NCBI RefSeq assembly: GCF_001632775.1 | Contig: NZ_CP015249.1 | Location: 62,001 to 126,000 of the forward strand | Source of the DNA: Dokdonella koreensis DS-123 | Lineage (GTDB): Bacteria > Pseudomonadota > Gammaproteobacteria > Xanthomonadales > Rhodanobacteraceae | Direction of reading: 5' to 3' | Length of the DNA: 64,000 nucleotides | Part shown: in pieces, positions 4,913-46,598 of the stretch | Layout of the letters: each line of letters begins with the position of its first letter | Position numbering within the stretch: the stretch's first letter is position 1 | Program-made: the position numbers and the translations under genes | Notes under the pieces: model-generated | The model's input: the letters and a program-made list of their open reading frames with translations, nothing else | Database searches by the model: none | What the model was told of the DNA's origin: nothing

Positions 4913-4957
4913 CCGGATCACGTGGGGCCGCACCCGATCCAGGCAAGGGTGCCGCGA

Positions 4958-5917: not shown

Positions 5918-5942
5918 GAGAACTTCACTCCGGAATGCCGTA

Positions 5943-5996
5943 CCGAGAAAAAGACAGGCCCCGCGAGCGTCAGCGCGCGGGGCCTCGTTTTCTCGG
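5943..5996 (-). terminator. Terminator in the terC leader (expression platform)
   Basis: Read on the minus strand, a perfect 10-bp stem AGGCCCCGCG/CGCGGGGCCT (5976-5985 and 5956-5965) is followed by TGTCTTTTTCTC. Outer complementary flanks CCGAGAAAA and TTTTTCTCGG extend the stem. It lies between the aptamer and the terC ATG at 5917, so it can interrupt terC transcription. Confidence 0.85.
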
Positions 5997-6002
5997 GGCA
6001 CA

Positions 6003-6124
6003 CCTTCGCCGTCGTCACGGCGAAGGTCTCGCTCGCAGGTCCTTGACGGGCCTGCCCACCGGGCCGGGATCGGGACGATCCGTGATGACGACCGTGGCGG
6101 CGGGAGCTACTCCCCTTCGTTGCG
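6003..6124 (-). promoter_or_regulatory. yybP-ykoY manganese riboswitch with alternative hairpin, upstream of terC
   Basis: On the minus strand the leader contains the class signature GGGGAGTAGC (complement at 6106-6115), GTCGTCATCA, CCGGTGGGCAG and GCGAGACCTTCG. These are the conserved blocks of the yybP-ykoY (Mn2+) aptamer in the right order. P1 is formed by CGAAGG (6119-6114) with CCTTCG (6026-6021). The same 3' strand can instead form a perfect 9-bp hairpin (6018-6026 with 6003-6011), so P1 and this hairpin exclude each other. Family knowledge: Mn2+ stabilises the aptamer and turns on Mn exporters of the TerC/Alx and MntP types. Confidence 0.9.
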
Positions 6125-6130
6125 GGGCCG

Positions 6131-6136
6131 ACTGTA
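6131..6136 (-). promoter_or_regulatory. Candidate -10 box (TACAGT) for the terC leader
   Basis: TACAGT on the minus strand ends 7 bp before the predicted transcript start near 6124, just ahead of the riboswitch. The -35 region is not obvious. Between this box and the rlmI promoter lies a perfect 12-bp inverted repeat (6190-6201 / 6209-6220, 7-nt loop) of unknown role. Confidence 0.45.
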
Positions 6137-6189
6137 CACCATCCCCGGCCGGCCGTCGCCGTCCGGGATGGACGCCCCGGCTGAACGCC

Positions 6190-6220
6190 CCCCCGGCGCG
6201 GCGGATTACCGCGCCGGGGG
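6190..6220. repeat. Perfect 12-bp inverted repeat between divergent terC leader and rlmI
   Basis: Arms CCCCCGGCGCGG (6190-6201) and its exact complement (6209-6220) surround a 7-nt loop. There is no T-run on either strand. It sits between two divergent promoters, so it could be a barrier to antisense transcription or a protein site. Confidence 0.5.
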
Positions 6221-6253
6221 CCCCGGCACGCATCCAAAGTCCACGACACGCTC

Positions 6254-6259
6254 TATCAT
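6254..6259 (+). promoter_or_regulatory. Leaderless-type -10 box (TATCAT) for rlmI
   Basis: TATCAT ends exactly 6 nt before the rlmI ATG at 6266, so initiation 7 nt downstream of the box would start at the A of the ATG. No Shine-Dalgarno sequence precedes this ATG, which fits a leaderless mRNA. glnE shows identical spacing. Confidence 0.5.
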
Positions 6260-6265
6260 CTGTCG

Positions 6266-7450
6266 ATGAATTCGCATGCTTCCGGGCCGCTGCCCGTCAT
6301 TCAGCTCAAGACCGAACGCCGTTCCAACCATCCCTGGATCTTCCAGAAGATGGTCGAGAAGCCCGCCGTCAAGCCGCGACCGGGCACGGTCGTGGACATC
6401 GTCGACCGCGAAGGAAGCTTCGCCGGCCGTGGCTTCTACAACGGCCATTCGCGCATCGCCCTGCGGGTCCTGACCGCCGATCCGGACGAGGCCGTCGACG
6501 AGGCGTTCTTCGCGCGCAGGATCGCCCAGGCGGTCGCGCTGCGCCGCGAGGTGCTCAAGCTCGACACCGTCACCGATGCCTACCGGCTGATCCACTCCGA
6601 AGGCGACGGCCTGTCCGGACTGGTGGTGGACCGCTTCGCCAATACGCTGGTCATCGAGTATTTCTCCGCCGGCATGTTCAAGCAGCGCGACCTGATCCGT
6701 CGCTGCCTGCTGGAGCATTTCCCGGACGCCGACCTCTACTGGTTCGCCGAGGAGCACGTCCAGAAGCAGGAGAGCTTCGATTGCGCGATCCCGGCGGCGC
6801 CGCAGCCGACGGTGATCCACGAGTACGGCGTCAAGTTCCATGCCGCGCCGGGCACCAAGCACAAGACCGGCTTCTTCGCCGACCAGCGCGACAACCGCCG
6901 GCTGCTGGCCGATTTCTGCAACGGCAGCCGCGTGCTGGACCTGTGCTGCAACTCCGGCGGCTTCGCGATCTACGCCAAGGCGATCGGCCAGGCGGCCGAA
7001 GTCGTCGGTGTCGACCTGGACGAGGAGATCCTCGGCATCGCCGAGCAGAACGCCCGCTTGAACAAGGCGCGGGTCCGTTTCGTCCAGGCCGACATCTTCC
7101 CGTGGCTGCGCGACCTGGCGGTCGCCGGCCGCGAGCGGTTCGACGTGGTCGTGCTCGATCCGGCCAAGATGACCCGCGATCGCGAGCAGGTGATTCCGGC
7201 GCTCAAGAAGTACCTGGACATGAACAAGCTGGCGCTCGGCGCGGTCAAGCCCGGCGGCATCTTCGTGACCTGTTCGTGCACCGGCCTGGTCAGCGAGGAG
7301 CAGTTCCTCGACATGCTGCGGCGCGCGGCGTTCTACGCCAACCGGACGGTCCAGGTGCTCAAGGTCAGCGGTGCCGGTGCCGATCATCCGTTCCTCGCGC
7401 ACGTGCCGGAGAGCCGGTACCTCAAGGCGGTGTTCTGCCGTGTCGAATGA
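6266..7450 (+). CDS. rlmI: RlmI-like class I SAM-dependent 23S rRNA cytosine methyltransferase
   Basis: 394 residues, the family length. An N-terminal PUA domain (about 10-85, LKTERRSNHPWIFQKMVEK) is followed by a central EEHVQKQE linker motif typical of RlmI/RlmK. The Rossmann methyltransferase domain starts near 200 (TGFFADQRDNRRLL, then motif I VLDLCCNSGGFAIYA). Catalytic-type motif IV VVLDPAKM and the cysteine motif VTCSCTG follow. RlmI forms m5C1962 in 23S rRNA; the exact target here is inferred by similarity. No ribosome binding site is seen before ATG 6266, consistent with the leaderless promoter. The following chorismatase gene begins inside its last codons, so the two are likely cotranscribed. 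Confidence 0.9.
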   Translation: MNSHASGPLPVIQLKTERRSNHPWIFQKMVEKPAVKPRPGTVVDIVDREGSFAGRGFYNGHSRIALRVLTADPDEAVDEAFFARRIAQAVALRREVLKLDTVTDAYRLIHSEGDGLSGLVVDRFANTLVIEYFSAGMFKQRDLIRRCLLEHFPDADLYWFAEEHVQKQESFDCAIPAAPQPTVIHEYGVKFHAAPGTKHKTGFFADQRDNRRLLADFCNGSRVLDLCCNSGGFAIYAKAIGQAAEVVGVDLDEEILGIAEQNARLNKARVRFVQADIFPWLRDLAVAGRERFDVVVLDPAKMTRDREQVIPALKKYLDMNKLALGAVKPGGIFVTCSCTGLVSEEQFLDMLRRAAFYANRTVQVLKVSGAGADHPFLAHVPESRYLKAVFCRVE

Positions 7451-8459
7451 CCGGACCGCTCATCGCCCGGCGCTGGACGTCGTGGCCGGCGGTCCGTCAC
7501 ACCGTGCGGCGGTTGCCGACCGCCTGCCGGCGCTGCGCATCGCGCTCGAACAGGCCGACCCGTCCGGACTGCTGGCCCGCGACGACGTGCTCGCCGTCAT
7601 CGGCTTCGGACGAACCGGTCTTCCCGCCGATCCACGGTGCCTGCGCGTCGGCCTGGAACCGATCGGCCCGGCGCCGCTGGAGGTCTGGTACGGCCAGGGC
7701 CCGGTGAGGCACGGCGAGGATGCCGGCATCCGCTGGAGCCGCGACGAGGACTACACGTTCTTCGCGATCGAGGTGGCCGAGGAGCCTGGCTCCGCCCTCG
7801 GCGGTGCCGCCGAGCGGCTCTACCGCCGGCTCGGTACCTGGCTGGCGGCCCAGCCGCATCACCTGCTGCGGCTGTGGAACTACTTCGACGCGATCAACGA
7901 TGGCGACGGTGACGAGGAACGCTACCGCCAGTTCTGTACCGGGCGTGTCCTGGGCATGCAGGATCTGTTCGGTGCCGTCTATCCGGCGGCGACCGTGATC
8001 GGCCGCCGCGACGGCGAGCGCGTGCTGCAGGTCTACGGCCTGGCCGCGCGCCGGCCCGGCGAGGCGATCGAGAATCCGCGCCAGCTCAGCGCCTGGCGCT
8101 ACCCGCGCGACTACGGTCCGACCGCGCCGCGGTTCGCGCGCGCGATGCGCAGTCCCGGCGACCAGCTGCTGATCTCGGGAACGGCGGCGATCGTCGGGCA
8201 CGCGTCGCGCCACCGCGAGGACGTCGTGGCGCAGCTCGAGGAAACACTGGCCAACCTGGACAGCCTGTGCGCGGCCGTTTCATCCGGGCTGCGGCTGGGA
8301 TCGGGCAGCGTGCTCAAGGTCTACGTGCGCCGGCCGCAGGACGCCGCCGCGATCCTCCAACGCCTGCGCACCCACGTGCCGGGCGGTGCCGTGCTGGTGC
8401 TGGCCGGCGACGTCTGCCGGCGCGAGCTGCTGGTCGAGGTCGACGGCATTCACGGCTGA
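7440..8459 (+). CDS. xanB2: Chorismatase, XanB2/FkbO/Hyg5 family
   Basis: About 339 residues from GTG 7440, overlapping the rlmI stop by 11 bp. The sequence shows the chorismatase pattern: GFGRTGLPADP, LEVWYGQGPVRHG, FFAIEVAEEP, LLRLWNYFDAIN, then RYRQFCTGR and a C-terminal RidA-like half (DQLLISGTAAIVGHAS, VLKVYVRRPQD). These enzymes hydrolyse chorismate. In Xanthomonas, XanB2 yields 3- and 4-hydroxybenzoate feeding xanthomonadin pigment and ubiquinone, while FkbO-type members make dihydroxycyclohexadiene carboxylate. Which product is formed here cannot be told by eye. No aryl-polyene genes are nearby, so a ubiquinone (4-HBA) supply is plausible. The start is uncertain: there is no strong RBS and the open frame extends further upstream. 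Confidence 0.82.
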   Translation: MSNDRTAHRPALDVVAGGPSHRAAVADRLPALRIALEQADPSGLLARDDVLAVIGFGRTGLPADPRCLRVGLEPIGPAPLEVWYGQGPVRHGEDAGIRWSRDEDYTFFAIEVAEEPGSALGGAAERLYRRLGTWLAAQPHHLLRLWNYFDAINDGDGDEERYRQFCTGRVLGMQDLFGAVYPAATVIGRRDGERVLQVYGLAARRPGEAIENPRQLSAWRYPRDYGPTAPRFARAMRSPGDQLLISGTAAIVGHASRHREDVVAQLEETLANLDSLCAAVSSGLRLGSGSVLKVYVRRPQDAAAILQRLRTHVPGGAVLVLAGDVCRRELLVEVDGIHG

Positions 8460-10273
8460 GCCGCAGCGGCGGCGGCCGGCGCAGCCGCCGCTTCCTCCGC
8501 GGCCGCCTCCACGGCCGGCGGCTGCTCGCCGCGCTGGCGCAGCTGGCTGAGCGCCGCGAGGCCGGCATCGCCGGCCGGCACGAAGGCCGGTCCGAAAACG
8601 GTTTCCTGCCGCAGCTTCTCGGTCAGCGCGAACCACGGGTCGTCGATGCCGAGCAGGGCGAGCAGCCGCCCCGGCAGCATGAACGAGGCGCTGTCCTCGC
8701 GCGCCGCCTGCGGGGCCGCCGAATCCAGCAGCAGCCAGGGCACGGGCTGCTGGTGCGGCGGATGGCCGTCGACGAAGCCCAGCGTCTCGAACGTGATCGG
8801 CAGCCCCGGCAGGTGGTCGCCGTAGAACAGCAGCAGGGTGCGCCGCTCGCGCTGGCGCAAGGCATCGGCGAGCCAGCCCAGGGCGCGGTCGGCATTGCCC
8901 AGGTGATAGAGGAAGGTGCGCAGGCGCCCGGCACTGGCCGGCCGCAGCCGTGCCGGCACCTCGATCGCATCGCGGCGCCGCGGCTCGGCCAGCGGCTTGG
9001 ACGCATCGTAGGGACCGTGCAGCTCCATGCTGATCGCGACGATCAACTGCGGCGGCCCGCTGTCCGGCAGCCGCTCGACGATGCGTTCGGCCAGTGCCTG
9101 GTCGCTGACGAAGAAGCCGTCGCGCGGCGCGCCGGCGAAATCCGCCTCGCTCTCGAAGCGCTCGATGCCGAGGTTCTTCAGCGCCGCCGCGCGGTTCCAG
9201 AACGCCGGGTCATTGGGATGCAGCGCCAGGCTGCGATAGCCCTGGGCCGCCAGGACCGACACCAGGCCCGGCAGCCCGTTGCCGACCAGCTGGAAGTACG
9301 GGTACTCGTTCTGCGGGAAATGGCGCATCGCCAGGCCGGTCAGCACCTCGAACTCGGTGCGGATCGTGCCGCCGCCGAAAGCCGGCACCCACAGGTCGCC
9401 GTGGATCGCCTCGCGCGCGAGGCGCCGGTAGTGCGGCAGGTGCTCGCGCTGCTGCAGTCCTTGCAGGCGGCCCGGATCGAAGAACGATTCGCTCTGCACG
9501 ATGACGATGTCGGGCAATGCCGCCGGCGGCGGTCGCGGCGCGGTGCCGGCCGGCATCTGCGCCAGCAGTGCGGCTGCGGCGGCACGGTCGGGAGTCGGTA
9601 CCGGTTCGGAGTACTGCCAGCGGAAGCGCAGCAAGCCGGCCACGAGACCGATGTTCGAGACCGTTTCCCGCGGCGACCACGGCACGAAGGCGACCTTTTC
9701 CTGCGCGTAGAGCAGCCGCCACGGCTGCACGCCCGTCACCAGCGTGACGACCACCAGCCCGGCCGCCAGCAGCGGCAGCGACCGGCGGCGGCCGCCGCTG
9801 CCGCGCCAGGGACGCTCCCAGCGGGCGAGGCCGGCGGTGACGAGCATCACGCCCAGCCACGGTGCCCATGCGTCCACGCTCGCCGGCAGGTAGTGCCGGA
9901 GCAGTCCCGCGCTTGCCCGCGGTGTCGTGAGCATCATGAAATCCGCCGGCAGCAACGGCGTTTCCAGATGCTCGAGTTTCAGCGCGTTGATCCCGTACAG
10001 CAGGGCCAGCACGACGGCACCCAGCCATAGCGACAGCAAGGGACGCCGCGTCAGTGCCAGTACCAGCAGGCAGGCCGCCAGAACCGGCAGGGCGTTGAGG
10101 ACCGGCAGCAGCCATTCCGTTCCGGTATCGGCATCCTGGAACGCCGGGTCGAGGGCGACGACGATCAGCGACAGCAGCGCCAGTGCCAGCAACGAGCCGG
10201 CGATGCCGCCCACCAGACGTGAAGCCGAGCGCGCGCCACGGGCCTCGGAAACCGTTCCGTCACGAAGTCGCAT
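8450..10273 (-). CDS. LTA synthase-like sulfatase-fold phosphoglycerol transferase (copy 1)
   Basis: 607 residues. An N-terminal membrane domain with about five helices (residues 20-195) is followed by a periplasmic alkaline-phosphatase-superfamily domain starting IVIVQSESFFDPGR. The catalytic threonine is in GGGTIRTEFEVLTG. Other metal-site motifs are seen: SMELHGPYDA and LLLFYGDHLPGLP. In Firmicutes such enzymes polymerise glycerol phosphate. In Gram-negative bacteria they add phosphoglycerol or related groups to periplasmic glucans or lipids (OpgB-like). The C-terminal 30 residues are almost all Ala/Glu/Pro. Its 3' end overlaps the convergent xanB2-like gene by 10 bp. A clear paralogue lies directly upstream on the same strand. 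Confidence 0.88.
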   Translation of the reverse strand: MRLRDGTVSEARGARSASRLVGGIAGSLLALALLSLIVVALDPAFQDADTGTEWLLPVLNALPVLAACLLVLALTRRPLLSLWLGAVVLALLYGINALKLEHLETPLLPADFMMLTTPRASAGLLRHYLPASVDAWAPWLGVMLVTAGLARWERPWRGSGGRRRSLPLLAAGLVVVTLVTGVQPWRLLYAQEKVAFVPWSPRETVSNIGLVAGLLRFRWQYSEPVPTPDRAAAAALLAQMPAGTAPRPPPAALPDIVIVQSESFFDPGRLQGLQQREHLPHYRRLAREAIHGDLWVPAFGGGTIRTEFEVLTGLAMRHFPQNEYPYFQLVGNGLPGLVSVLAAQGYRSLALHPNDPAFWNRAAALKNLGIERFESEADFAGAPRDGFFVSDQALAERIVERLPDSGPPQLIVAISMELHGPYDASKPLAEPRRRDAIEVPARLRPASAGRLRTFLYHLGNADRALGWLADALRQRERRTLLLFYGDHLPGLPITFETLGFVDGHPPHQQPVPWLLLDSAAPQAAREDSASFMLPGRLLALLGIDDPWFALTEKLRQETVFGPAFVPAGDAGLAALSQLRQRGEQPPAVEAAAEEAAAAPAAAAAAQP

Positions 10274-10491
10274 CGCGCTGTGCTGGACCTCCCTGGCCGG
10301 CCCCCGCAGGCCGACGACTCATGGCGCCATCCACCGGGCGTGCCCGTCCGGACGACTGCGTGGCCGGTTTTCGCGTTCGGGCCGATAGGAAGCTGGCTCG
10401 GTCCCCCCGCGTTCCCCTAGGTCCGGCACGGTGGCACGGGCGCTGCCTGCGCCCGGATGCCCCAGATCGGGAAGTATGTTGCGACGCGACG

Positions 10492-10596
10492 TGGCAATTG
10501 TTGCCAAATCGTTAGAATCGGACGGGCAGCAACAAATTTGACTCGTGGGGAGGGAGAGCCCGCTGCGGTCGCTACGGCGCCGCAGCGGGCTTTTTT
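10492..10596 (+). ncRNA. Candidate small RNA unit: inverted repeat, -10 box and intrinsic terminator
   Basis: Within the 382-bp gap between the two minus-strand LTA-synthase-like genes, the plus strand holds an inverted repeat TGGCAA-TTG-TTGCCA (10492-10506) and a TAGAAT box (10513-10518). A strong terminator follows: a 12-bp perfect stem 10557-10568 / 10580-10591 running into TTTTTT. The T-run is on the plus strand only, so it cannot serve either flanking minus-strand gene. A transcript of about 70 nt starting near 10525 is inferred. No ORF is visible in it. It could instead simply block antisense transcription. Confidence 0.45.
10557..10596 (+). terminator. Strong plus-strand intrinsic terminator in the LTA-synthase gene gap
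   Basis: Perfect 12-bp stem AGCCCGCTGCGG / CCGCAGCGGGCT with an 11-nt loop, immediately followed by six Ts (10591-10596). No plus-strand gene lies upstream, which is why a small transcript is suspected. Confidence 0.85.
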
Positions 10597-10655
10597 CTGT
10601 CGGTGTGTTTCGCGCTGTGCGCGGTTTCGCAGCGAGCGCGAAACCGTGTCTTCGT

Positions 10656-12485
10656 TTACGGCGCCAGCGCCTGTTCGTCTTGCGCGGCCGGTTCGGCCGC
10701 CAGCGCCTCGTCGAGCAACGAGGGCAGTTCACCGCGCAATTGCAGACGCGCCAGTGCCAGCAGCCCGGCCTGTTCGGTGCCGTCGAGTTCGCGGTCGTCG
10801 AGGTCGATCTGCGAGCGCAGCGTGTCGATGACGGCGAAGTAGGGTTCGTCGTGGACGCCGGCGGCATCGAGCAGCAGCGAGGGCAGCAGCCAGCTGCGCG
10901 TGTTGAAGCGCTGCGGCCGCGTGCGCGCGCTGTCGTACAGCAGCCACGGCACGGTCTGCAGCTGCGCGTCGCGTTCGTCCTCGAAGCCGAGCTGGTGGTA
11001 CACCGGCGGCAGCGCCGGCAGGTGGTCGCCGTAGAACAGCACCAGGGTGCGGCGCTCGCGCTTCTTGAGCGCGCCGATCAGCCGGCCCAATTCGCGGTCG
11101 GCGTCCTCCAGCAGGTACAGGTAGTTGCCGAGCCAGTAGCGCCCGCCCTCGTCCAGGCGCTCGGGCATCGACAGCCGCGACAGCCGCTCGGCGTCCAGGC
11201 CCGGGCGCCAGTCGAACGGGCCGTGGTTCTCCATGCTGATCGCGAAGATGAAGTGGGGCTGCCCGCCCGTGTCGAGCTCGGCCAGGATGCGATCGGTCAG
11301 GGCCGCGTCGGACGTGAACAAGCCGACGACGTCCTCTTTCGAGAATGCGCCGATATCGAGGAAGCGGTCGAAGCCCAGCGCGGGATAGGCCTTGCTGCGG
11401 TTCCAGAACGCGGCGGAGTTGGGATGGATCGCGGTGGTGCGATAGCCCTGCCGTGAAAGCACCGAGGCCAGGTTCGGCAGGTCGTGGCGATGCAGCTCCA
11501 GCCACGGATACTGTAGGCCGCCGAGCGTATCGAGCGGCACGCCGGTCAGCACCTCGAACTCGGTGCGGATCGTGCCGCCGCCGAAGGTCGGCACCGTCAT
11601 CTCTCCGGCCTTGGCGCGCTTGCGCAGCCGGTGGTACTCGCGCAGGTACTGGCCGCTGGGAATGTCGCGCAGGCGCGCCGGGTCGAACAGCGATTCGCTC
11701 TGTACGACGACGATGTCCGGTGCCGGCTCGCCGGCGGCGGTGGCGGCCAGGCGCGCGCGCAATGCCGGTCCGTGATCGTGCAGCAGGGCCAGCGCCGCCT
11801 CGCGGTCCGCGCGCGGCACGTCGCCGCCGCCGAGCTCCCAGTGGTACATCAGCAGGGCGCCGATCAGGCCTACGTGCGTCGTGCTCTCGGCCAGTGCCCA
11901 GGGCTCGAACCCCAGGCGCCGGGCGTCGAAGACCCGCTTCCACGGGCCGCTGCCGGCGACCATCGTGACGGTGGCGACGACGGCGACGGCGCCCAGCGCC
12001 AGCCGGCGCCAGCCGGCCAGCCCCGGCAAGCCGGGCCGGTTCCACAGCAGCAACGTGAACAGGATGACGGCGGCCGCCGGCAGCAGGTGGCGCATCTCGA
12101 ACGAGACATAGTGGCCGAACAGCTCCAGCGCCGGACCCGGCTCGCTGAAGAAGCGCAGGTCCGCCGGCAGCAACGGCGTCTGCAGGTGCTCGATCTTCGC
12201 GGCGTTCGCCGCGTACAGCCCGGCGATCGCCAGCAGGGTCAGCCAGCAGGCCAGCAACAGGCGCCGGGTCAGCGCCCACAGCGCCAGCAGCAGGGCCACG
12301 GCCGGCAGCGTATTGAGTGCGAGCAACCCGAGATTGCCGCCGGCCGACGCGGCGCGCGCGGCAAAGGCGGGATCGAGCCGGTCGACCACGCCCATCAGCA
12401 GGCCGGCGCAAAGGACCAGCGCCAGCACCAGGCGCATGGGCGTGCGTCCGGCCGGCGACTGGCGGAGAGCGAGAAGGATGTTCAT
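10656..12485 (-). CDS. LTA synthase-like sulfatase-fold phosphoglycerol transferase (copy 2)
   Basis: 609 residues from ATG 12485 (MNILLALRQSPAGRTPMRLV). The architecture matches the downstream paralogue: five membrane helices, then IVVVQSESLFDPARL, catalytic threonine in GGGTIRTEFEVLTG, SMENHGPFDWRP and LVLFYGDHLPALP. The membrane loop with AAKIEHLQTPLLPADLRFF parallels NALKLEHLETPLLPADFMML in copy 1, so the two arose by duplication. It probably transfers phosphoglycerol-type groups in the periplasm; the acceptor is unknown. The 5' end is divergent from glnE, separated by 121 bp. The longer open frame to 12581 overlaps the glnE promoter and is not favoured. Confidence 0.88.
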   Translation of the reverse strand: MNILLALRQSPAGRTPMRLVLALVLCAGLLMGVVDRLDPAFAARAASAGGNLGLLALNTLPAVALLLALWALTRRLLLACWLTLLAIAGLYAANAAKIEHLQTPLLPADLRFFSEPGPALELFGHYVSFEMRHLLPAAAVILFTLLLWNRPGLPGLAGWRRLALGAVAVVATVTMVAGSGPWKRVFDARRLGFEPWALAESTTHVGLIGALLMYHWELGGGDVPRADREAALALLHDHGPALRARLAATAAGEPAPDIVVVQSESLFDPARLRDIPSGQYLREYHRLRKRAKAGEMTVPTFGGGTIRTEFEVLTGVPLDTLGGLQYPWLELHRHDLPNLASVLSRQGYRTTAIHPNSAAFWNRSKAYPALGFDRFLDIGAFSKEDVVGLFTSDAALTDRILAELDTGGQPHFIFAISMENHGPFDWRPGLDAERLSRLSMPERLDEGGRYWLGNYLYLLEDADRELGRLIGALKKRERRTLVLFYGDHLPALPPVYHQLGFEDERDAQLQTVPWLLYDSARTRPQRFNTRSWLLPSLLLDAAGVHDEPYFAVIDTLRSQIDLDDRELDGTEQAGLLALARLQLRGELPSLLDEALAAEPAAQDEQALAP

Positions 12486-36617: not shown

Positions 36618-37778
36618 TCAGGCCGGCCATACCGCATGCAGCGGATCGAACTCGATCTCCTCGCGGGTATCGGCTCGATGGCCGAAGCCGCCGACGCCAA
36701 TGACGCCCTGCGTCATCGGGTCGAGACCGAAGGCCGCCTCGATGTCGACCTCGTTGACGGCCGCCGTGAAGAACGCCGCCAGGCCGCGTTCGGTCGCCGC
36801 GAGATAGAGCGTCTGGGACAGGTGGCCGACATCGAGGATCGTCGCCCGATACGCCTTGGCGTGCTGGCGGTACTTCCAGAAATTGCGCTCGAAGCGGCTC
36901 GCATAGATCACCAGGACAGGCGCCTCCAGGAAGTAGCGCTGCACGGCGACGAAGCGCAGCGCCAGTGCGTCGGCCTCGGCGGCTTCCAGCTGGCGCAGCG
37001 GCTCCAGCGCGTGGGCCACGGCGTGGTAGTGATACAGGCCGGGCGCGACGCCGTCGACCCGACGGACCAGCAGGTAGGCCTCGGTCGGGTGCAATCCGCC
37101 GGCCGACGGCGAGCCCTTCTTGAGCACCGGAACACCGGTGACGGTCGCTTCGGCGCGTGCGCCGAAGACCAGGCCCAGGACCGAGGCCAGGTCGTCGGGC
37201 GCCAGCGGGCGGACCGGATCGAAGTTCCGGCAGGTCACGCGCCGGGCCATCAGCGCAGCCAGCGGCGAGGCGGGCGTGCCGGGAAGCGCGATCCGTGCCT
37301 CGGGCGGGCCGCGCTCGACCGAGGTGGCAGGAGGCGGGCCCAGGTGCGCCAGGGGTTCGCCCTCGACGAGCTCCTGGAAGCGGCCGCGTTCGCGCTCGCT
37401 GTCGATGTCGCGCCAGCGCAGATGACGATGCGCGACAGCCGACAGGCCTTCCCAATGCGTCGTGCGGACGCTGTCGTCGGCGTTGGCCGTCGCCGTGTGC
37501 TCGGCGACCAGCAGGCCCTTGGCTTCCAGTGACTGCAGGGTCTGGGTGGGGTGTTCGTATTCGAGCTGCGAGCGATCGGTCCAGGCATGAGCCGATACCT
37601 TGCCCAGGACGGCGATCTCGTCGAGGTCCACGCGGACCTCGGCGTCCAGGTGCGCCGCCAATGCCACCCACTCGAAGGTCGAGGCGAGGCGCGGTGTTTC
37701 CCTCAGCATCAGCTCCAGGTCGATCGTGAACCGCTCACGGGGCTGGATGACGACACAGTGACAACGGCGCAGGCGCAT
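36618..37778 (-). CDS. SagB-related peptide maturation dehydrogenase of an NHLP-type RiPP system
   Basis: About 386 residues. The C-terminal two-thirds is a SagB/ThcOx-like nitroreductase-fold FMN dehydrogenase (LMARRVTCRNFDPVRPLAPDDL, KKGSPSAGGLHPTEAYLLVRR, YRATILDVGHLSQTLYLAATERGLAAFFTAAVN). The N-terminal part (MRLRRCHCVVIQPRERFTID) lacks a recognised fold and has Cys6 and Cys8. It matches the annotated 'putative peptide maturation dehydrogenase' family (TIGR04511 from memory). ATG 37778 is chosen because GGA precedes it by 6 nt. It likely oxidises azoline-like or other precursor residues, but no YcaO cyclodehydratase is nearby. It diverges from the precursor gene and starts about 170 bp from it. 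A TACAAT box is visible at about 37813 (minus). Confidence 0.85.
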   Translation of the reverse strand: MRLRRCHCVVIQPRERFTIDLELMLRETPRLASTFEWVALAAHLDAEVRVDLDEIAVLGKVSAHAWTDRSQLEYEHPTQTLQSLEAKGLLVAEHTATANADDSVRTTHWEGLSAVAHRHLRWRDIDSERERGRFQELVEGEPLAHLGPPPATSVERGPPEARIALPGTPASPLAALMARRVTCRNFDPVRPLAPDDLASVLGLVFGARAEATVTGVPVLKKGSPSAGGLHPTEAYLLVRRVDGVAPGLYHYHAVAHALEPLRQLEAAEADALALRFVAVQRYFLEAPVLVIYASRFERNFWKYRQHAKAYRATILDVGHLSQTLYLAATERGLAAFFTAAVNEVDIEAAFGLDPMTQGVIGVGGFGHRADTREEIEFDPLHAVWPA

Positions 37779-37892
37779 GGACATTCCGATCGGAACAAAA
37801 CCGGGATTGTAGGATGCCGGGTGCGATCCGGGCCCGGCCGCCGGTGCCGCCGCGCGGATCGGGTGATGACGCCGATGAGGTTCGACCGGCAA

Positions 37893-37921
37893 TGGCAAGC
37901 ACGAAGTTCTGAAGGTAAACT
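37893..37921 (+). promoter_or_regulatory. Candidate promoter of the RiPP precursor gene
   Basis: TGGCAA (37893-37898), 17-bp spacer, TAAACT (37916-37921), 24 bp before the ATG at 37946. A divergent TACAAT box near 37813 could serve the dehydrogenase. Match quality is modest. Confidence 0.4.
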
Positions 37922-37945
37922 GAGAACCTCGTCAGGGGAGTTGTC

Positions 37946-38227
37946 ATGGGTGAATGCGAATTGACGGCCGCGCAGGCCGAGGCTCTGCTCAAGCGCGTCG
38001 CGACCGACGATACGTTCCGGGCCCTGTTTCAGGCGGCGCCGGCCAAGGCCTTGAGCGTTCTTGGCATTCCGGACGACATCATCATCAACCTGCCCGCTGC
38101 GTGCCTGATTCCCAAGACGCTCGCGTCCAAGGCCACGCTGGACGATCTGCTGAAGAAGTACCGGGAAGTGACCGTCAACGCGGCGATGGGCATGAACGTG
38201 CCCTGGATCAAGATGGAGCAGTGCTGA
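37946..38227 (+). CDS. NHLP-related RiPP precursor peptide
   Basis: 93 residues. The leader-like half resembles nitrile-hydratase-leader peptides: ELTAAQAEALLKRVATDDTF, ALFQAAPAKALSVLGIPDDI, then NLPAACLIPKTLASKATLDDLL. Cysteines are at 4, 53 and 93 (the last residue). No classic GG cleavage site is visible, so the leader/core boundary is unknown; the C-terminal 20 residues (KYREVTVNAAMGMNVPWIKM then EQC) are a plausible core. It fits the 'putative modified peptide' family (TIGR04509 from memory). A good RBS (AGGGGAG, 6 nt) and a candidate promoter precede it. It is flanked by the dehydrogenase (divergent) and the cyclase-TPR gene (convergent). Confidence 0.88.
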   Translation: MGECELTAAQAEALLKRVATDDTFRALFQAAPAKALSVLGIPDDIIINLPAACLIPKTLASKATLDDLLKKYREVTVNAAMGMNVPWIKMEQC

Positions 38228-38287
38228 CGGGCGAGGCCTGCCGGTCCGATCCGGGCTTCTGACGGGTCGGAGCGTCAACCGGCGGCG

Positions 38288-40957
38288 TCATCGAGCCGGC
38301 GAGGTGGGACGCTCGGCGAGCTTCACCGCGGCCAGCCGTTCCTTGAATGCAGGCACCGCCTCGATACCCGGCCACAGGCCCAGGAACCTGTCGTAGAACT
38401 GCCGGGCATCCTCGGCCTTCCCCTTCACCGACGACAGGCGTGCCGATTCCAGCACGGCCAGGTCGGAAAAAAGCACGTTGACCGGTATCAGGACCAGCTG
38501 GCCGAACTGTTCGGCGTAGGCGCGCCCGCGATGGTCGCCCAGCCATTTGGCCTGGGCCAGCGCGGCGTCGATGTCACCCTGTTCGGCGTAGGCCCGCATC
38601 ATCACCTGGTGGCTGAAGTAGAACTCGTGGCCGTCGAAGTACGGCTTGAGCATCGCGATCGCCTCGCCGGGCTTGCCTTGCGCGCGGGCGATCTCCGCCT
38701 CGACGACGGTCAGCAGGCTTGCCAGAAACGGATGATCGCCTTTGCGGCTGAATGCCGCGGCGCCGGCCAGGAACCGCTGCGCGAGCGCCACGTCGTTCTG
38801 AGTCGCCGCGAGATACGCCCCCATCAGCCGATGGAACTGCAGGTCCACGGGACGGATCTGTGCCGCGTCGAGTTCCTTGACGTAGGACGACAGCCGCGCG
38901 ACGACCGCATCGCGTGAGTCGGTCTGCGCCCTGACGATGTTTTCTATGGTCTGGAAATCGAAGTAGAACGATCCCTTGATGGCCCGGGTTTCCGCTTTCG
39001 CGTGCCCGAGGATTTCGAGTGCCTGCTGCCATCGGCCGCGGTCGATCGTCAGCGCGGTCCGCGCGAACCAGACCTCGGCATCGCTGGTGGGCAATCCGGT
39101 CGCGGCGCCTTTCGCGAGAATCTGGTCGGCCTGGTCGAACTTTCGCTGCGCGGCGTAGAGGTAGGCGTAGAAGATGTTCTGCGTCGCGTAGTCGTTGGCC
39201 GCCGCTTCGCGGAAGCGGCGCTCGGCATCGTCGAAGCGCTCCTGGCCGAGGTAGAGCGTCGCCAGGAGGTAGTCCGCCATCGCGCGCCGCGGGTTGGTCG
39301 ATACCGCGATCTTCTCGATGGCACGGATGGCGTCGTCGAAGCGATTGGCGGCCTGCCACGAAAAATAGCCCAGGCCGCCGCTGGCAGGGATCGAATCGGG
39401 GTAGAGCTGCTCCATTAGGCGCCACTTCTCCAGGGCGACCCGCGGCGTACCGTTGTTGCTCAGCCAGGCCTGTGCGTACAGCGCGTCGCGCGTCGACAGC
39501 CGGTCGACCATGTTCACGGCGTGCTCGAGTTCCTTGGCGATCTCGGCCGGGTCGCCGGCTCCGGTCAGCAGCAGGGTCCGGCCCAGGCCGACCCGCGCCA
39601 GCGCGAAGTCGGGGTCGAGCGCGACGGCCTGGCGAAACAGCGGAATGGCCTCTTTCCGGTTTCCCTTGCTGTCCTCGGTGACGGCCAGCGTATAGGCGCG
39701 CAGCGCGTCGAGGTTCGAGGTGGTCACCTTCTCGAGCGGCTTGCTGTCGGTGGAGATCACCGCGACCGCTTCGCCCAGGCGTTCGCGCAGCTGGCGATTG
39801 ACCTTGTCCATCGACGGCAGCACCGAATCGGCACCCAGGCCGTCGGATGATTCGGAATACACGGTGGTCTGCGTCTTCGGGTCGATCACCTCGGCGGTGA
39901 CGCGCACGCGGCCGCCGATCTCGGCGATGCTCGGCAGGATCAGGGCCCGGGCGCCGTCGCGCAGGGCCACCTCCGAGCCGATCGCGCGATCGATCGACGT
40001 GCCGTTCGGGTCGCGCTTCATGCGCGCGATCGTGTCGCGGACCTTCAGGTCGGAGAGGATGTTGACGTAGCGCGACTGCTCCAGGCCGATCCGGAACGCC
40101 ATTTGCAGCGAGTCGTCGAAGATCGACTGGTCGGTGTGGTTCTGGAAGTCGCCGACGACGACCCAGTCGCGGCTGGCGAACGCGATGGCCGGCGGCGACC
40201 GGAGCATCGTGTAGACCGGCACGATGATCGCGGCCGCGATCAGCAGCGCTTCGAGCACCAGCACCGAGGGCCGCCGCCAGAACGGTACTTCGCGATAGGC
40301 CTTGCCCGACCACGGCGGGGTCTGGAACGGCGCCAGCCCTTCCTCGCCGACCTCGAACACCGGCACCGGCTCGGGCACGCCCTTGAAGCGGTAGCGGCCG
40401 TGGGCGCGCCAGCGGATCTTGTCGACCGCCTCGGTCAGTTCGCCCTGCGCGCGGTGGGCCAGGGCCCAGGTGATGCCCGACAGCAGGATCTGGCCGGGGC
40501 GCGCCAGCGAAGCCAGCCGCGAGGTGATCGGCTTGGCCAGGCCTTCGATGTCGACCGGCTTGGCGCCCTTGGCGATTTCCTCCTCGGCATTGTCCCAGAG
40601 CAGCACGTCGCCGACGTGGATGCCCACGCGTGCCTTCAGATTGCTGCTTTCCTGCAGATTGAACTGGTGCAGCGTGCGCTGATAGTCGAGCGCGAAGGCG
40701 ACGGCCTGGATCGGCCGGTCGAACATCAGCAAGAACCCGTCGGTCTTGTCGATCTCGTGGCCGTCGTGGACCTGCAGCAACGCGCGCGTGAAACGGTCGT
40801 GGCGGCGGATCAGCTGCGTGGAGGCCAGGTCGCCGAGGTTGTGCACCAGGGCGGTCGAATCGACCAGGTCGCACAGGACGAGCGTGCGTAGCAGCGGCCT
40901 GGCGCGATCGGGTGACGCAGATCCTGCGGCGGGCAAAGACTGGGCGATGGCTTCCAT
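38288..40957 (-). CDS. Cyclase-domain/TPR membrane protein of the RiPP system
   Basis: 889 residues. The N-terminal class III nucleotide-cyclase-like domain (about 20-200) has metal Asp30 (LCDLVDST) and Asp73 (KTDGFLLMF), with Arg147 in GLAKPITSRL. One transmembrane helix follows (about 233-253, VLVLEALLIAAAIIVPVYTML). A TolB-like domain begins WVVVGDFQNHTDQSIFDDSL. The C-terminal 500 residues are TPR-type repeats. It matches the 'putative peptide modification system cyclase' family (TIGR04510 from memory). The usual transition-state asparagine position (VNxAxR) reads KPITSR, so catalysis is doubtful. It converges on the precursor gene with a 60-bp gap. The adjacent cNMP-binding GGDEF gene is on the same strand. 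Confidence 0.88.
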   Translation of the reverse strand: MEAIAQSLPAAGSASPDRARPLLRTLVLCDLVDSTALVHNLGDLASTQLIRRHDRFTRALLQVHDGHEIDKTDGFLLMFDRPIQAVAFALDYQRTLHQFNLQESSNLKARVGIHVGDVLLWDNAEEEIAKGAKPVDIEGLAKPITSRLASLARPGQILLSGITWALAHRAQGELTEAVDKIRWRAHGRYRFKGVPEPVPVFEVGEEGLAPFQTPPWSGKAYREVPFWRRPSVLVLEALLIAAAIIVPVYTMLRSPPAIAFASRDWVVVGDFQNHTDQSIFDDSLQMAFRIGLEQSRYVNILSDLKVRDTIARMKRDPNGTSIDRAIGSEVALRDGARALILPSIAEIGGRVRVTAEVIDPKTQTTVYSESSDGLGADSVLPSMDKVNRQLRERLGEAVAVISTDSKPLEKVTTSNLDALRAYTLAVTEDSKGNRKEAIPLFRQAVALDPDFALARVGLGRTLLLTGAGDPAEIAKELEHAVNMVDRLSTRDALYAQAWLSNNGTPRVALEKWRLMEQLYPDSIPASGGLGYFSWQAANRFDDAIRAIEKIAVSTNPRRAMADYLLATLYLGQERFDDAERRFREAAANDYATQNIFYAYLYAAQRKFDQADQILAKGAATGLPTSDAEVWFARTALTIDRGRWQQALEILGHAKAETRAIKGSFYFDFQTIENIVRAQTDSRDAVVARLSSYVKELDAAQIRPVDLQFHRLMGAYLAATQNDVALAQRFLAGAAAFSRKGDHPFLASLLTVVEAEIARAQGKPGEAIAMLKPYFDGHEFYFSHQVMMRAYAEQGDIDAALAQAKWLGDHRGRAYAEQFGQLVLIPVNVLFSDLAVLESARLSSVKGKAEDARQFYDRFLGLWPGIEAVPAFKERLAAVKLAERPTSPAR

Positions 40958-41160: not shown

Positions 41161-42240
41161 TTAGCAGAATGCCGGAGAATCGCCGCCGGCGTCCATATGC
41201 TTTACGTTTATACCATCGCCGCCCTCGCCTTTTACCGCGTAGAGCGCGGTATCGGCATAGCTGTACCAGGCAGTCCAGGTAGCCTCCAGGGGGCAGAGGC
41301 CGCCGCCGATGCTGACGGCGATCTGCAGCGTATCGGCACCGGCCGGGAAGCGCAGCGCGCGGATCGCCCCGGCGATCTGGTCGGCGCGTGCCTGGAGCTC
41401 GTCCAGGGACGTGATTTGGGCCAGGAAGGCGAATTCGTCGCCACCCAGGCGGCAGGGCATGTCGCAGGCCGCCGCGGCGTCGCGCAGGGCGTCGGCGATG
41501 GCCTTCAGCACGGCATCGCCGACCAGGTGGCCGCAGCGGTCGTTGATCTGCTTGAAGTGGTCGACGTCGATCAGCAGCAGGCCGAGTGTCGTGTCGTGGA
41601 TGCGCCGCTGCTGCAGCTGCTCCAGGTAGAGATAGAGACCGCGGCGATTGCACAGGCCGGTCAGCTCGTCGGTCTGGACCAGCCGCTGTGCGGTCGTCAG
41701 CTGGGTCTGGGCCTGTCGCAGCGAATCGAGCGTGACCATCAGGTCCTCGTTCCTGCGGCGCAGGTTGGCGATCAGCTGCTGCTCGCTGGCGACCAGGTAC
41801 GAAAACGAGCGCTGCATGAAGCGCGCCAGCAGGCGCGGCTCGCTGTCGAGCAGGTCGGAGAAGGCGTCGTGGCTGACCACCCACAGCGTGGTCGGCTGCG
41901 CTGCGATCGCGTTGGCGACACGGGCATGGTTGCCGATGAAGAGCGCCAGCTCGCCGAAGAATTCACCCGGACCGATCAGCTTGTCGACGACGCTGTCGCC
42001 GAACTGCAGGCGCACCTGGCCGGCCTGCACGATGAACATGCTGCGGCCTTGCTCGCCCCGGTGGAAGATCAGGTCGTCGGCGAGTGCTTCGCGGCGGGCG
42101 CCGACACGTGCGAAGAGCTCGATCTCCGCGGTGGACAGCTGGCGGGGGTGCGTCGCGTTCGAGGCAGACGGATGCCTGGCCGCAGCCGGAGCGGCATTCG
42201 CTTCCGAGACGGACGACGGCGCTGACGACACGATGACCAC
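41161..42240 (-). CDS. Cyclic-nucleotide-binding domain fused to GGDEF diguanylate cyclase
   Basis: 359 residues. A cNMP-binding domain (about 37-150) shows the phosphate-binding cassette GEFFGELALFIGNHARVANAIA with Arg107. After a short coiled coil (IANLRRRNEDLMVTLDSLRQAQTQL), the GGDEF domain (about 185-350) has the intact active motif GGDEF at 266-270. The inhibitory RxxD site before it is missing (AACD). It would make cyclic-di-GMP in response to cAMP or cGMP binding. GTG 42240 is used; GTG 42231 with GGGGTGG 5 nt upstream is an alternative. It is immediately upstream of the cyclase-TPR gene on the same strand, 203 bp apart. Confidence 0.88.
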   Translation of the reverse strand: MVIVSSAPSSVSEANAAPAAARHPSASNATHPRQLSTAEIELFARVGARREALADDLIFHRGEQGRSMFIVQAGQVRLQFGDSVVDKLIGPGEFFGELALFIGNHARVANAIAAQPTTLWVVSHDAFSDLLDSEPRLLARFMQRSFSYLVASEQQLIANLRRRNEDLMVTLDSLRQAQTQLTTAQRLVQTDELTGLCNRRGLYLYLEQLQQRRIHDTTLGLLLIDVDHFKQINDRCGHLVGDAVLKAIADALRDAAAACDMPCRLGGDEFAFLAQITSLDELQARADQIAGAIRALRFPAGADTLQIAVSIGGGLCPLEATWTAWYSYADTALYAVKGEGGDGINVKHMDAGGDSPAFC

Positions 42241-45581: not shown

Positions 45582-46598
45582 ATGGCGATGGCCACGCGAA
45601 CCCCAGCCAAACGAACATCGCACGCCTCCCCGGGCACGGCCGCGGGCGCCGCGCCGCGCTTCTACTACAAAGGCAACAGGATCAAGCAGTTGAGGGCGTT
45701 CTGCACGATCGCCAAGCTGGGTACGCTGTCACGCGCGGCCGAGGCGCTGTTCCTGTCGCAGCCGGCGGTCAGCCTGCAGCTGGCGGCGCTGGAGCAAGAG
45801 CTGGGCGTGGTCCTGGTCGAGCGTCGCCGCCGCCGTGTCGCCCTCAGCCGCGAAGGACAGCTGCTCTATGAGCTGGCCCAGCCGCTGATCGACGGGTTCG
45901 ATGCGCTCGACGGCGAGTTCCGCTCGCGCATGCAGGGCCTGGCGGGTGGAGAGCTCAACATCGCGGCGGGCGCCTCGACGATCCAGTACCTGCTGCCGCC
46001 GATGGTGGCGCGCTACCGCGAGGTGCAGCCCTCGGTGCGGCTGCATCTGCACAACGTCACCGGTCGCGACGGCCTGGCCCTGCTGCGTTCGGACCAGGTC
46101 GATTTCGCGGTGGGGTCGATGCTCGAAGTGCCGGTGGACCTCAGCTACGAGCCGATCTACCACTTCGATCCGCTGTTGATCCTGCCGCTCGACCATCCGC
46201 TGGCGGCGCGGACCGACATCCACCTGGAAGACCTGTCGCCGTACGGGCTGATCCTGCCGCCGAAGCGACTGACGACCTATCGCCTCGTGGACCTGATCTT
46301 CCAGCAGCGCAAGGTGCCGTTCCACGTCGCGATCGAGGTGGGCGGCTGGGAGGTCATCAAGGAGTACGTCGCGATGGGCCTGGGTATCTCGATCGTCACG
46401 GGCATCTGCGTGACCGATGCCGATCGCGCGCGGCTCGCGGTACGCAACCTGCGGCAGTACTTCCCGCAGCGCAGCTACGGGGTGGTGATTCGCAAGGGGC
46501 GCTACCTGACGGCCGAGGCACGGGCGTTCGTGGACCTGATCCGGCCGGGCCTGTTCATGCGTCGCGACTACTTCGAGCCGGGACATTCGGAGCGCTGA
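45582..46598 (+). CDS. LysR-family regulator divergent from aceBA
   Basis: 338 residues from ATG 45582. The N-terminal helix-turn-helix reads LRAFCTIAKLGTLSRAAEALFLSQPAVSLQLAALEQELGVVLVER, followed by the LysR effector-binding domain. A longer, Ala/Pro-rich N-terminal stretch precedes the HTH. It is divergent from the glyoxylate-shunt genes, so regulation of aceBA is likely; the effector is unknown. Its 3' end overlaps the convergent DUF4126 gene by 44 bp. A TTG start at 45576 is less likely. Confidence 0.92.
   Translation: MAMATRTPAKRTSHASPGTAAGAAPRFYYKGNRIKQLRAFCTIAKLGTLSRAAEALFLSQPAVSLQLAALEQELGVVLVERRRRRVALSREGQLLYELAQPLIDGFDALDGEFRSRMQGLAGGELNIAAGASTIQYLLPPMVARYREVQPSVRLHLHNVTGRDGLALLRSDQVDFAVGSMLEVPVDLSYEPIYHFDPLLILPLDHPLAARTDIHLEDLSPYGLILPPKRLTTYRLVDLIFQQRKVPFHVAIEVGGWEVIKEYVAMGLGISIVTGICVTDADRARLAVRNLRQYFPQRSYGVVIRKGRYLTAEARAFVDLIRPGLFMRRDYFEPGHSER

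What the first reader, a model, noticed from the sequence alone, without database searches (positions are those of the whole stretch)
36618..40957. NHLP-related RiPP cassette: SagB-like dehydrogenase, 93-aa precursor, cyclase-TPR protein
Three genes form a compact unit around a short peptide with NHLP-like leader features (Cys4, Cys53, Cys93) and no visible double-Gly site. The dehydrogenase is FMN-type without a neighbouring YcaO protein, and the third gene is a large membrane cyclase-TPR protein not used in known RiPP maturation. I recall matching TIGRFAM families (TIGR04509, 04510, 04511) that are named but, to my knowledge, lack a described product. This is the best candidate for an undescribed system in the window.
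Basis: partly seen in the sequence, partly recalled or inferred. Interest (0 to 1): 0.85.

Follow-up and report, generated by a model that had tools for sequence, protein, structure and literature searches.

The report
Peptide cassette beside cGMP signalling genes
A small leader-type peptide and a flavin dehydrogenase that probably modifies it are inherited together with a membrane guanylate cyclase and, usually, its cGMP-controlled partner, which suggests that the peptide is part of a bacterial second-messenger signalling circuit rather than an ordinary antibiotic cluster.

Summary
The 93-aa ORF, the dehydrogenase and the cyclase-TPR protein match TIGR04509, TIGR04511 and TIGR04510 well above the curated cut-offs. 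The same 42 of 200 sampled genomes of the order have all three over cut-off; no genome has only one or two.

The interpretation needs correcting. The third gene is not a maturation enzyme but the counterpart of Xanthomonas campestris XC_0250, a proven guanylate cyclase.

Across 115 loci, 107 of 109 cyclase matches have a convergent peptide gene beside them, and 122 of 122 dehydrogenases a peptide within 1.2 kb. The pair also occurs without the cyclase: in four actinobacterial loci, and in 12 of 12 Oxalobacteraceae loci beside a hybrid sensor kinase.

Best reading: a peptide-plus-maturase module supplies a ligand or regulator of a sensor that controls cGMP and c-di-GMP. Shown: linkage, shared presence and absence, conserved sites. 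Inferred: modification, export, binding. No YcaO or C39 peptidase was found in the genome, so azole chemistry and double-Gly export are unlikely.

The parts
36618..37784 (-). SagB-like FMN dehydrogenase (putative peptide maturase), TIGR04511
   Evidence: 448 bits against cut-off 240; also SagB family TIGR03605 117 bits against 78.4. K-Y-R and R-x-T-x-R invariant in the 30 sequences aligned (window and 29 relatives).
37785..37945 (.). Divergent region between dehydrogenase and peptide genes; AGGGGAG, the likely ribosome-binding site of the peptide, at 37934-37940
   Evidence: Sequence; divergent p-d gap in 99 loci, median 141 bp between the HMM-matched ends, AGGGGA in 40 of 99.
37946..38227 (+). 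93-aa NHLP-related leader-type peptide, TIGR04509
   Evidence: 56.9 bits against cut-off 34, positions 2-63 of 87 matched; purifying selection in relatives.
38288..40957 (-). Membrane class III cyclase with C-terminal TPR region, TIGR04510 (counterpart of XC_0250)
   Evidence: 884 bits against cut-off 400; Pfam Guanylate_cyc residues 26-184, TPRs.
40358..40897 (-). Cytoplasmic cyclase domain (limits approximate)
   Evidence: D30, D73, A152 each 100% conserved in 107 aligned domains, D43 98%.
40202..40267 (-). Single transmembrane segment (residues 231-252), N-terminus inside by the positive-inside rule
   Evidence: Most hydrophobic 19-residue stretch of the window protein (mean 2.4); net charge before the segment exceeds that after it in 107 of 107 aligned proteins. 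No topology predictor was run.
38291..40195 (-). Predicted periplasmic sensor region with TPRs
   Evidence: Topology; TPR matches. Mean pairwise identity 35% in this region against 57% in the catalytic part (65 units).
   Evidence: Pfam cNMP_binding and GGDEF; best PDB match 5h5o; F73, E90, H98, E146 equivalents present in 79 of 79 proteins examined.

Best explanation
The locus is a peptide-driven second-messenger module. (1) The 93-aa precursor is made in the cytoplasm; its N-terminal NHLP-like part serves as the leader. (2) The SagB-like FMN enzyme oxidises the precursor. Because no YcaO is available and the tail has no conserved Cys, Ser or Thr, the likeliest reaction is a direct dehydrogenation (for example C-alpha/C-beta desaturation of a hydrophobic tail residue) rather than azole formation. 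(3) The modified peptide, or its C-terminal fragment, acts on the TPR sensor region of the membrane guanylate cyclase, most likely in the periplasm. (4) The cyclase sets the cGMP level, which through the linked cNMP-GGDEF protein sets c-di-GMP and hence the biofilm or lifestyle programme. Shown here: the gene set, its shared presence and absence, conserved catalytic and cGMP-contacting residues, a membrane topology that fits the sequences, and a different sensor partner in another lineage. Taken from the literature on the Xanthomonas counterparts: the cyclase makes cGMP, which activates the diguanylate cyclase. Inferred: that the dehydrogenase acts on the peptide, the chemistry, export, and that the peptide is the ligand.
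For: All three families occur over cut-off in exactly the same 42 of 200 genomes. The cNMP-GGDEF orthologue (both domains matched, E <= 1.1e-46) is in 41 of those 42 and in 3 of the other 158; the 42nd, G091, has a decayed cyclase domain: 14 of 33 otherwise conserved columns kept, while each other protein keeps at least 93.9%; it retains the rest of the profile, five peptides and the dehydrogenase. 107 of 109 cyclase matches have a convergent peptide next to them; the two exceptions are the G091 protein and a second G096 protein (L089) without the cyclase domain. Five loci show, within the stretches read, two cyclase-peptide pairs and one dehydrogenase, with different tails kept at each position. 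Peptide plus dehydrogenase occur with another kind of sensor, a propeller-type hybrid kinase, in 12 of 12 Oxalobacteraceae loci; two of the four kinases scanned by Pfam carry a GGDEF domain. In G106 and G111 cyclase, peptide and dehydrogenase are absent together, and the cNMP-GGDEF match lies 226 and 93 bp from the YifB match. Peptide-tail divergence follows dehydrogenase divergence after controls (partial r 0.25, 0 of 500 permutations as high). XC_0250/XC_0249 biochemistry: PMC3770947.
Against: Peptide-tail divergence does not follow that of the periplasmic region once the other genes are controlled for (partial r 0.057, 54 of 500 permutations as high), so a ligand-receptor match is not seen in that test. 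No exporter or leader peptidase recurs widely beside the cassette in the sampled regions, no Peptidase_C39 was found in the genome, and the peptide has no signal sequence that I can see, so how it would reach the periplasm is unexplained. Four actinobacterial loci have peptide plus dehydrogenase with neither cyclase nor propeller kinase beside them. That the Oxalobacteraceae kinases are membrane proteins with an outside propeller is recalled from the domain type; a hydropathy scan of one (L178) showed no clear membrane segment (best window 1.56). An et al. report that the XC_0250 cyclase domain alone is active in vitro and restores biofilm formation, so the TPR region is not strictly needed for output. 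Two genomes keep the cNMP-GGDEF gene without the cassette, and in G014, G024 and G073 it lies away from the cassette. X. campestris itself was not among the named loci read, so the presence of the peptide beside XC_0250 there is inferred from X. cucurbitae (L173) and Xanthomonas-like genomes.
Confidence: 0.46

Rival explanations
1. Cytoplasmic regulator: the peptide is never exported. Peptide and flavoenzyme form a redox-sensitive complex that acts on the cytoplasmic side of the cyclase or kinase, so the flavin state rather than a secreted ligand is the signal.
For: No C39 peptidase found, no widely recurrent exporter beside the cassette, no visible signal sequence; the peptide tail covaries with the dehydrogenase, not with the periplasmic region; leader and middle helix are conserved, as in a protein-binding module.
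Against: The cytoplasmic domains of cyclase and hybrid kinase are unrelated by Pfam, and the parts kept in G091 and in the second G096 protein are those outside the cyclase domain. Tails differ between paralogous pairs.
Confidence: 0.23
2. Ordinary RiPP natural product: the dehydrogenase matures an antimicrobial or other secreted peptide and the cGMP/c-di-GMP module only controls when it is made.
For: Leader type and SagB-like enzyme are RiPP hallmarks (recalled). Peptide plus dehydrogenase exist without the cyclase in Streptomyces and Kribbella, with five peptides in Kribbella; a major-facilitator transporter lies beside the dehydrogenase in two of the four actinobacterial loci, L170 and L179. 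Tails are variable.
Against: Tails have no conserved Cys, Ser or Thr to modify in the usual ways; apart from the cNMP-GGDEF gene and chromosomal neighbours no further gene cluster recurs in most of the 43 sampled regions; one-to-one pairing of cyclase and peptide, including duplicated pairs, is not expected for a mere regulator of a product.
Confidence: 0.21
3. Genome hitchhiking: the peptide-dehydrogenase pair only happens to sit beside an ancestral signalling gene near the glyoxylate-shunt genes.
For: Most sampled regions share the position beside isocitrate lyase (cluster 2 in 34 of 43 regions).
Against: The cassette keeps its structure in regions where no isocitrate lyase gene is seen in the stretch read (G002, G012, G014, G024, G033, G059, G073), is absent as a block in two relatives, duplicates as cyclase-peptide pairs, and is complete or absent, over cut-off, in 200 of 200 genomes.
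Confidence: 0.05

Closest known systems
XC_0250/XC_0249 cGMP to c-di-GMP pathway of Xanthomonas campestris (An et al. 2013, PMC3770947; parts 1 and 2 of 4 and passages read)
   Same: Membrane class III cyclase with TPRs next to a cNMP-GGDEF protein; F73, E90, H98, E146 equivalents in 79 of 79 relatives; D41, D71, A150, L157 equivalents present in the window cyclase (D43, D73, A152, L159).
   Different: The paper's main text does not mention a peptide, XC_0251 or XC_0252; no input signal is named in the parts read. Window residues differ at the L73, A161 and N145 equivalents (F, T, S).
NCBIfam TIGR04509/TIGR04510/TIGR04511 set
   Same: All three window proteins exceed the cut-offs.
   Different: The family name calls the cyclase a part of a peptide modification system; the evidence here makes it a signalling protein and adds the cNMP-GGDEF gene.
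Thiazole/oxazole-modified microcin (streptolysin S type) pathways with SagB
   Same: SagB-family FMN dehydrogenase with the K-Y motif (role of the motif recalled).
   Different: No YcaO cyclodehydratase found in the genome; tails lack conserved Cys, Ser, Thr.
NHLP/Nif11 leader RiPPs exported by C39-peptidase ABC transporters (recalled)
   Same: Leader weakly similar to nitrile hydratase alpha (E 0.01) and to the Os1348 NHLP clan (21 bits, below its cut-off of 40).
   Different: No double-Gly site seen in the window peptide, no C39 peptidase found in the genome.
Cyclodipeptide oxidases, FMN-dependent C-C oxidation (PMC11760959; abstract and section list read)
   Same: Flavin-dependent dehydrogenation of peptide substrates without azoline formation: a precedent for the chemistry proposed.
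   Different: Acts on cyclic dipeptides as a filament of two small subunits; no leader peptide (recalled).
RRNPP peptide-pheromone receptors of Gram-positive bacteria (recalled)
   Same: TPR region as proposed peptide-binding part; peptide gene beside its receptor gene.
   Different: Those are cytoplasmic regulators; here a membrane cyclase in Gram-negatives with a leader-type, probably modified peptide.

Membership tests
TIGR04509 (NHLP-related RiPP peptide) | Score above curated cut-off 34 | tested here: met
   56.9 bits, E 1.7e-15; match covers positions 2-63 of 87, the tail is divergent.
TIGR04511 (putative peptide maturation dehydrogenase) | Score above curated cut-off 240, with conserved flavoenzyme motifs kept | tested here: met
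   448 bits; R-x-T-x-R, K-Y-R and T-x-A-x-N positions invariant in the 30 sequences aligned.
TIGR04510 (peptide modification system cyclase) | Score above curated cut-off 400 | tested here: met
   884 bits.
XC_0250/XC_0249-type cGMP to c-di-GMP pathway | Cyclase-TPR membrane protein linked to a cNMP-GGDEF protein | tested here: met
   Window 38288-40957 and 41161-42240; same-strand pair in 80 of 115 loci, 98 of which have a cyclase match; X. cucurbitae counterpart is 91.5% identical to 5h5o.
XC_0250/XC_0249-type cGMP to c-di-GMP pathway | cGMP-contact residues F73, E90, H98, N145, E146 | tested here: inconclusive
   Four of five present in the window and in 79 of 79 proteins; the N145 equivalent is Ser in the window (N 39, S 36, G 4).
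XC_0250/XC_0249-type cGMP to c-di-GMP pathway | cGMP synthesis and cGMP-activated diguanylate cyclase activity | not testable with these tools
   Needs biochemistry; shown for the Xanthomonas proteins only (PMC3770947).
Azol(in)e RiPPs (TOMM/LAP) | YcaO cyclodehydratase | tested here: not met
   No PF02624 match in the whole genome; the same search finds it in 5 of 14 control genomes.
Double-Gly leader RiPPs exported by C39-peptidase transporters | C39 peptidase transporter | tested here: not met
   No PF03412 match in the whole genome; found in 8 of 14 control genomes.
RiPP (general) | Ribosomal precursor shown to be enzymatically modified | not testable with these tools
   Only gene linkage and covariation with the dehydrogenase.

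The most novel reading that the evidence does not exclude
A family of enzymatically modified bacterial peptides that act as cognate ligands of membrane guanylate cyclases: the missing input of the cGMP to c-di-GMP pathway known from Xanthomonas. The peptide-plus-maturase module is portable and has been re-plugged into sensor kinases in Oxalobacteraceae and moved without its receptor into Actinomycetes.
Probability: 0.36. Interest if true: 0.9.

Novelty: new variant of a known kind. Interest (0 to 1): 0.72.

Why it matters
The cGMP to c-di-GMP pathway of Xanthomonas has a described output; no input signal was named in the parts of the paper that I read. This survey ties a specific, genetically tractable candidate input, a leader-type peptide with its own flavoenzyme, to that pathway in about a fifth of the sampled genomes of the order (42 of 200). 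If the peptide is the ligand, it would be a peptide-hormone-like guanylate cyclase system in bacteria and would give SagB-like enzymes without YcaO a substrate class.

Tried and rejected
Azole chemistry was rejected: no YcaO found in the genome. Of 150 distinct peptide translations (start choice may count some peptides twice), 117 have no Cys and 17 no Cys, Ser or Thr in their last 15 residues.

A ligand-receptor covariation test (65 single-copy units) supported peptide-dehydrogenase but not peptide-periplasmic-region coupling for the tail; kept as evidence against. For the leader the partial correlations were 0.213 with the dehydrogenase and 0.147 with the periplasmic region, without permutation tests.

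A conserved operator in the divergent gap was sought; the ribosome-binding-site word stood out most, the dyads found were rare (at most 4 of 99 gaps), and no CRP-like site was found.

A recurrent exporter or protease was sought by clustering ORFs of 80 aa or more in the 43 sampled regions: an S9 peptidase cluster recurs in 5 and an ABC-transporter cluster in 3 (one representative of each checked by Pfam), which I regard as neighbourhood noise. The neighbours of the 72 further named loci were not clustered. Two other neighbour clusters were at first labelled by guess; Pfam confirmed malate synthase but not the supposed LysR regulator, so that label is dropped.

Structure prediction was planned for the peptide and the periplasmic region but was switched off. 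PDB profile searches by sequence gave generic TPR proteins and weak matches, best nitrile hydratase alpha (E 0.01).

A sample of 349 genomes across the phylum found TIGR04511 over cut-off only in 6, all of the order; the Oxalobacteraceae and actinobacterial members came only from the named collection.


Full report
WHAT IS THERE. The three ORFs exist at the stated coordinates and match TIGR04511, TIGR04509 and TIGR04510 far above cut-off. The peptide gene lies between the other two on the opposite strand, so it diverges from the dehydrogenase and converges on the cyclase. A fourth gene, 41161-42240, on the same strand as and upstream of the cyclase, encodes a cyclic-nucleotide-binding domain plus GGDEF. 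Beyond it lie isocitrate lyase and malate synthase; a YifB-type ATPase gene lies on the dehydrogenase side.

CO-OCCURRENCE. In 200 genomes sampled from the order (own genome included), each of the three families exceeds its cut-off in 42 genomes, and the three sets are identical (compared). Weaker matches exist elsewhere: TIGR04511 in 10 further genomes and TIGR04510 in 148, all below cut-off; many of the latter match only part of the TPR region. An orthologue of the fourth protein, matched over both domains at E <= 1.1e-46, is in 41 of the 42 and in 3 of the other 158 (G030 at 35% identity, G106, G111). In G014, G024 and G073 it lies away from the cassette. In G106 and G111 the fourth gene still lies between isocitrate lyase and YifB, 226 and 93 bp from the YifB match, with no cyclase, peptide or dehydrogenase match there. 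So the three genes seem to come and go as one block; the direction of change was not tested.

A WIDER SET. I collected 43 regions from the 42 genomes and 78 named loci found by dehydrogenase similarity only (330 stretches confirmed, best 80 kept, 78 distinct). Six named loci duplicate sampled ones, leaving 115 distinct loci. HMMs of the four families, built from the sampled regions, were run on all. 122 of 122 dehydrogenase matches (over 200 bits) have a peptide within 1.2 kb. 107 of 109 cyclase matches (90 bits or more) are followed by a convergent peptide, median gap between the HMM-matched ends 50 bp. The two exceptions are telling: a second protein in G096 that has a hydrophobic anchor and a TPR region but no cyclase domain, and the G091 protein, whose cyclase domain is decayed (14 of 33 conserved columns kept; each other protein keeps at least 93.9%; Pfam finds no domain in it at 1e-5, but TIGR04510 positions 126-813 match with 538 bits). 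G091 is also the one cassette genome without the fourth protein. It keeps five peptides and the dehydrogenase. Five loci read cyclase-peptide-cyclase-peptide-dehydrogenase; what lies beyond their left ends was not seen. In these, peptides at the same position in different genomes are 55% identical on average against 36% for the two in one genome, and cyclases 61% against 55%. Five loci have the dehydrogenase turned round so that it precedes the peptide on the same strand.

OTHER LINEAGES. Twelve Oxalobacteraceae loci (Massilia, Duganella, Rugamonas) carry peptide plus dehydrogenase but no cyclase match. In all twelve a hybrid sensor kinase related to that of L158 lies beside the peptide on the same strand; these genera are close kin, so this may be one or two founding events. 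Four of these kinases were scanned: all have Reg_prop, Y_Y_Y, HisKA, HATPase_c, receiver and Hpt domains, and two also have GGDEF. Four actinobacterial loci (three Streptomyces, one Kribbella with five peptides) have peptide plus dehydrogenase without cyclase or such a kinase. Eight of their other neighbours were scanned (one, seven): they include an MFS transporter beside the dehydrogenase in Kribbella and in S. xanthophaeus, and a HisKA_3 kinase two genes from the peptides in Kribbella. In the dehydrogenase tree (quick method, midpoint root, with a warning on long branches near the outgroup) the actinobacterial rows nest in a Lysobacter group (SH-aLRT 97), and the Oxalobacteraceae rows group with L152 and L164, two cyclase-bearing loci (99). 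The simplest reading is that the pair moved out of the order, losing or replacing its sensor.

THE CYCLASE. An et al. 2013 (PMC3770947; parts 1 and 2 of 4 of the text read, plus term searches) showed that XC_0250, a cyclase-TPR protein of 886 aa, makes cGMP, and that the linked XC_0249 binds cGMP and then makes more c-di-GMP; both affect biofilm and virulence. Their residues D41, D71, L73, A150 and A161 fall at the same numbers in the X. cucurbitae protein of L173 (L157 is Ile there); the window protein has D43, D73, F75, A152, L159, T163 at +2. X. cucurbitae has the whole g-c-p-d set. By my own reading of class III motifs (recalled), D30 and D73 are the metal-binding pair; both are invariant in 107 domains. 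The PDB chain 5h5o carries all five cGMP-contact residues of XC_0249 at a constant offset of 22, so I take it to be that domain; the paper's own code is 4KG1, and the link between the two entries was not verified. F73, E90, H98 and E146 equivalents are present in 79 of 79 proteins; N145 is Asn in 39, Ser in 36 (window included), Gly in 4. One transmembrane segment with a positive N-terminal flank in 107 of 107 puts the TPR region outside. That region is less conserved (35% mean identity) than the catalytic part (57%), as expected of a sensor.

THE PEPTIDE AND ENZYME. Peptides share a leader-like N-terminal part (LL..LA.DD.FR..F..DP.AAL...G), a middle helix (LA.K......AR..L), then a variable tail, often with a Pro or Val before hydrophobic residues (77 of the 106 distinct named-locus peptides were given). 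Among 150 distinct translations 117 have no Cys in the last 15 residues and 17 no Cys, Ser or Thr. No YcaO was found in the genome. The enzyme keeps the SagB-type K-Y motif and flavin-site residues in the 30 sequences aligned (roles recalled). With no azoline to oxidise, direct dehydrogenation is the natural guess; FMN cyclodipeptide oxidases are a precedent (PMC11760959, abstract and section list read). Tail divergence follows dehydrogenase divergence after controls (partial r 0.25, 0 of 500 permutations as high), but not divergence of the periplasmic region (0.057, 54 of 500). The latter does not support a tight ligand-receptor fit.

HOW IT PROBABLY WORKS. See Best explanation. The strongest part is that the peptide module belongs to the signalling module. 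The weakest are export and binding: no C39 peptidase found in the genome, no widely recurrent exporter. A cytoplasmic mode of action is the main rival. On rechecking I lowered the main odds slightly (0.48 to 0.46; novel case 0.38 to 0.36), because the membrane nature of the Oxalobacteraceae kinases rests on recall and a transporter stands beside the pair in two actinobacterial loci.

NOVELTY. The families are named and half of the pathway is published. In the open-access library, searches for the family numbers and names and for XC_0250-XC_0252, and broader ones (listings seen), showed me no paper that describes the peptide's product or links it to the cGMP pathway; one paper (PMC8939145, passages read) uses 'peptide maturation dehydrogenase' for SagB beside ATP-grasp enzymes. 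Passages of PMC6637768 and PMC8846402 were also seen and name no such link. Subscription papers and supplements were not searched. The link between a RiPP-like peptide module and guanylate cyclase signalling, and the sensor swap, appear new.

Noticed in passing
L111 (G091), 524764-526598 of contig C2: Five near-identical tandem peptide genes beside the dehydrogenase and a cyclase protein with a decayed catalytic domain; no cNMP-GGDEF orthologue found in the genome.
   Followed up: partly
L170 (Kribbella antibiotica) 4573-6347: Five different peptide genes in a row with distinct tails beside one dehydrogenase: a natural combinatorial set for substrate-scope tests. A HisKA_3 kinase lies two genes away and an MFS transporter beside the dehydrogenase.
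   Followed up: partly
L144 (Aquimonas voraii): Three dehydrogenases and five peptides in one 14-kb stretch, with two cyclase matches (one cut by the locus end).
   Followed up: no
L089 (G096) 9458-11272: Stand-alone anchored TPR protein related to the sensor half of the cyclase, directly after the dehydrogenase.
   Followed up: partly
L157 (Rehaibacterium terrae) 6507-7682: Dehydrogenase reads as two adjacent pieces, possibly a frameshift or sequencing error; left as is.
   Followed up: no
L085, L087, L097, L101, L109 and L091, L098, L106: A prolyl-oligopeptidase (S9) cluster recurs near the cassette in five regions and an ABC-transporter cluster in three; possible processing or export partners, or chance.
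   Followed up: partly
window 45729-46586 (-): An ORF whose cluster recurs in 32 of 43 sampled regions beside malate synthase but has no Pfam match at 1e-5; possibly the wrong frame of a conserved gene.
   Followed up: partly
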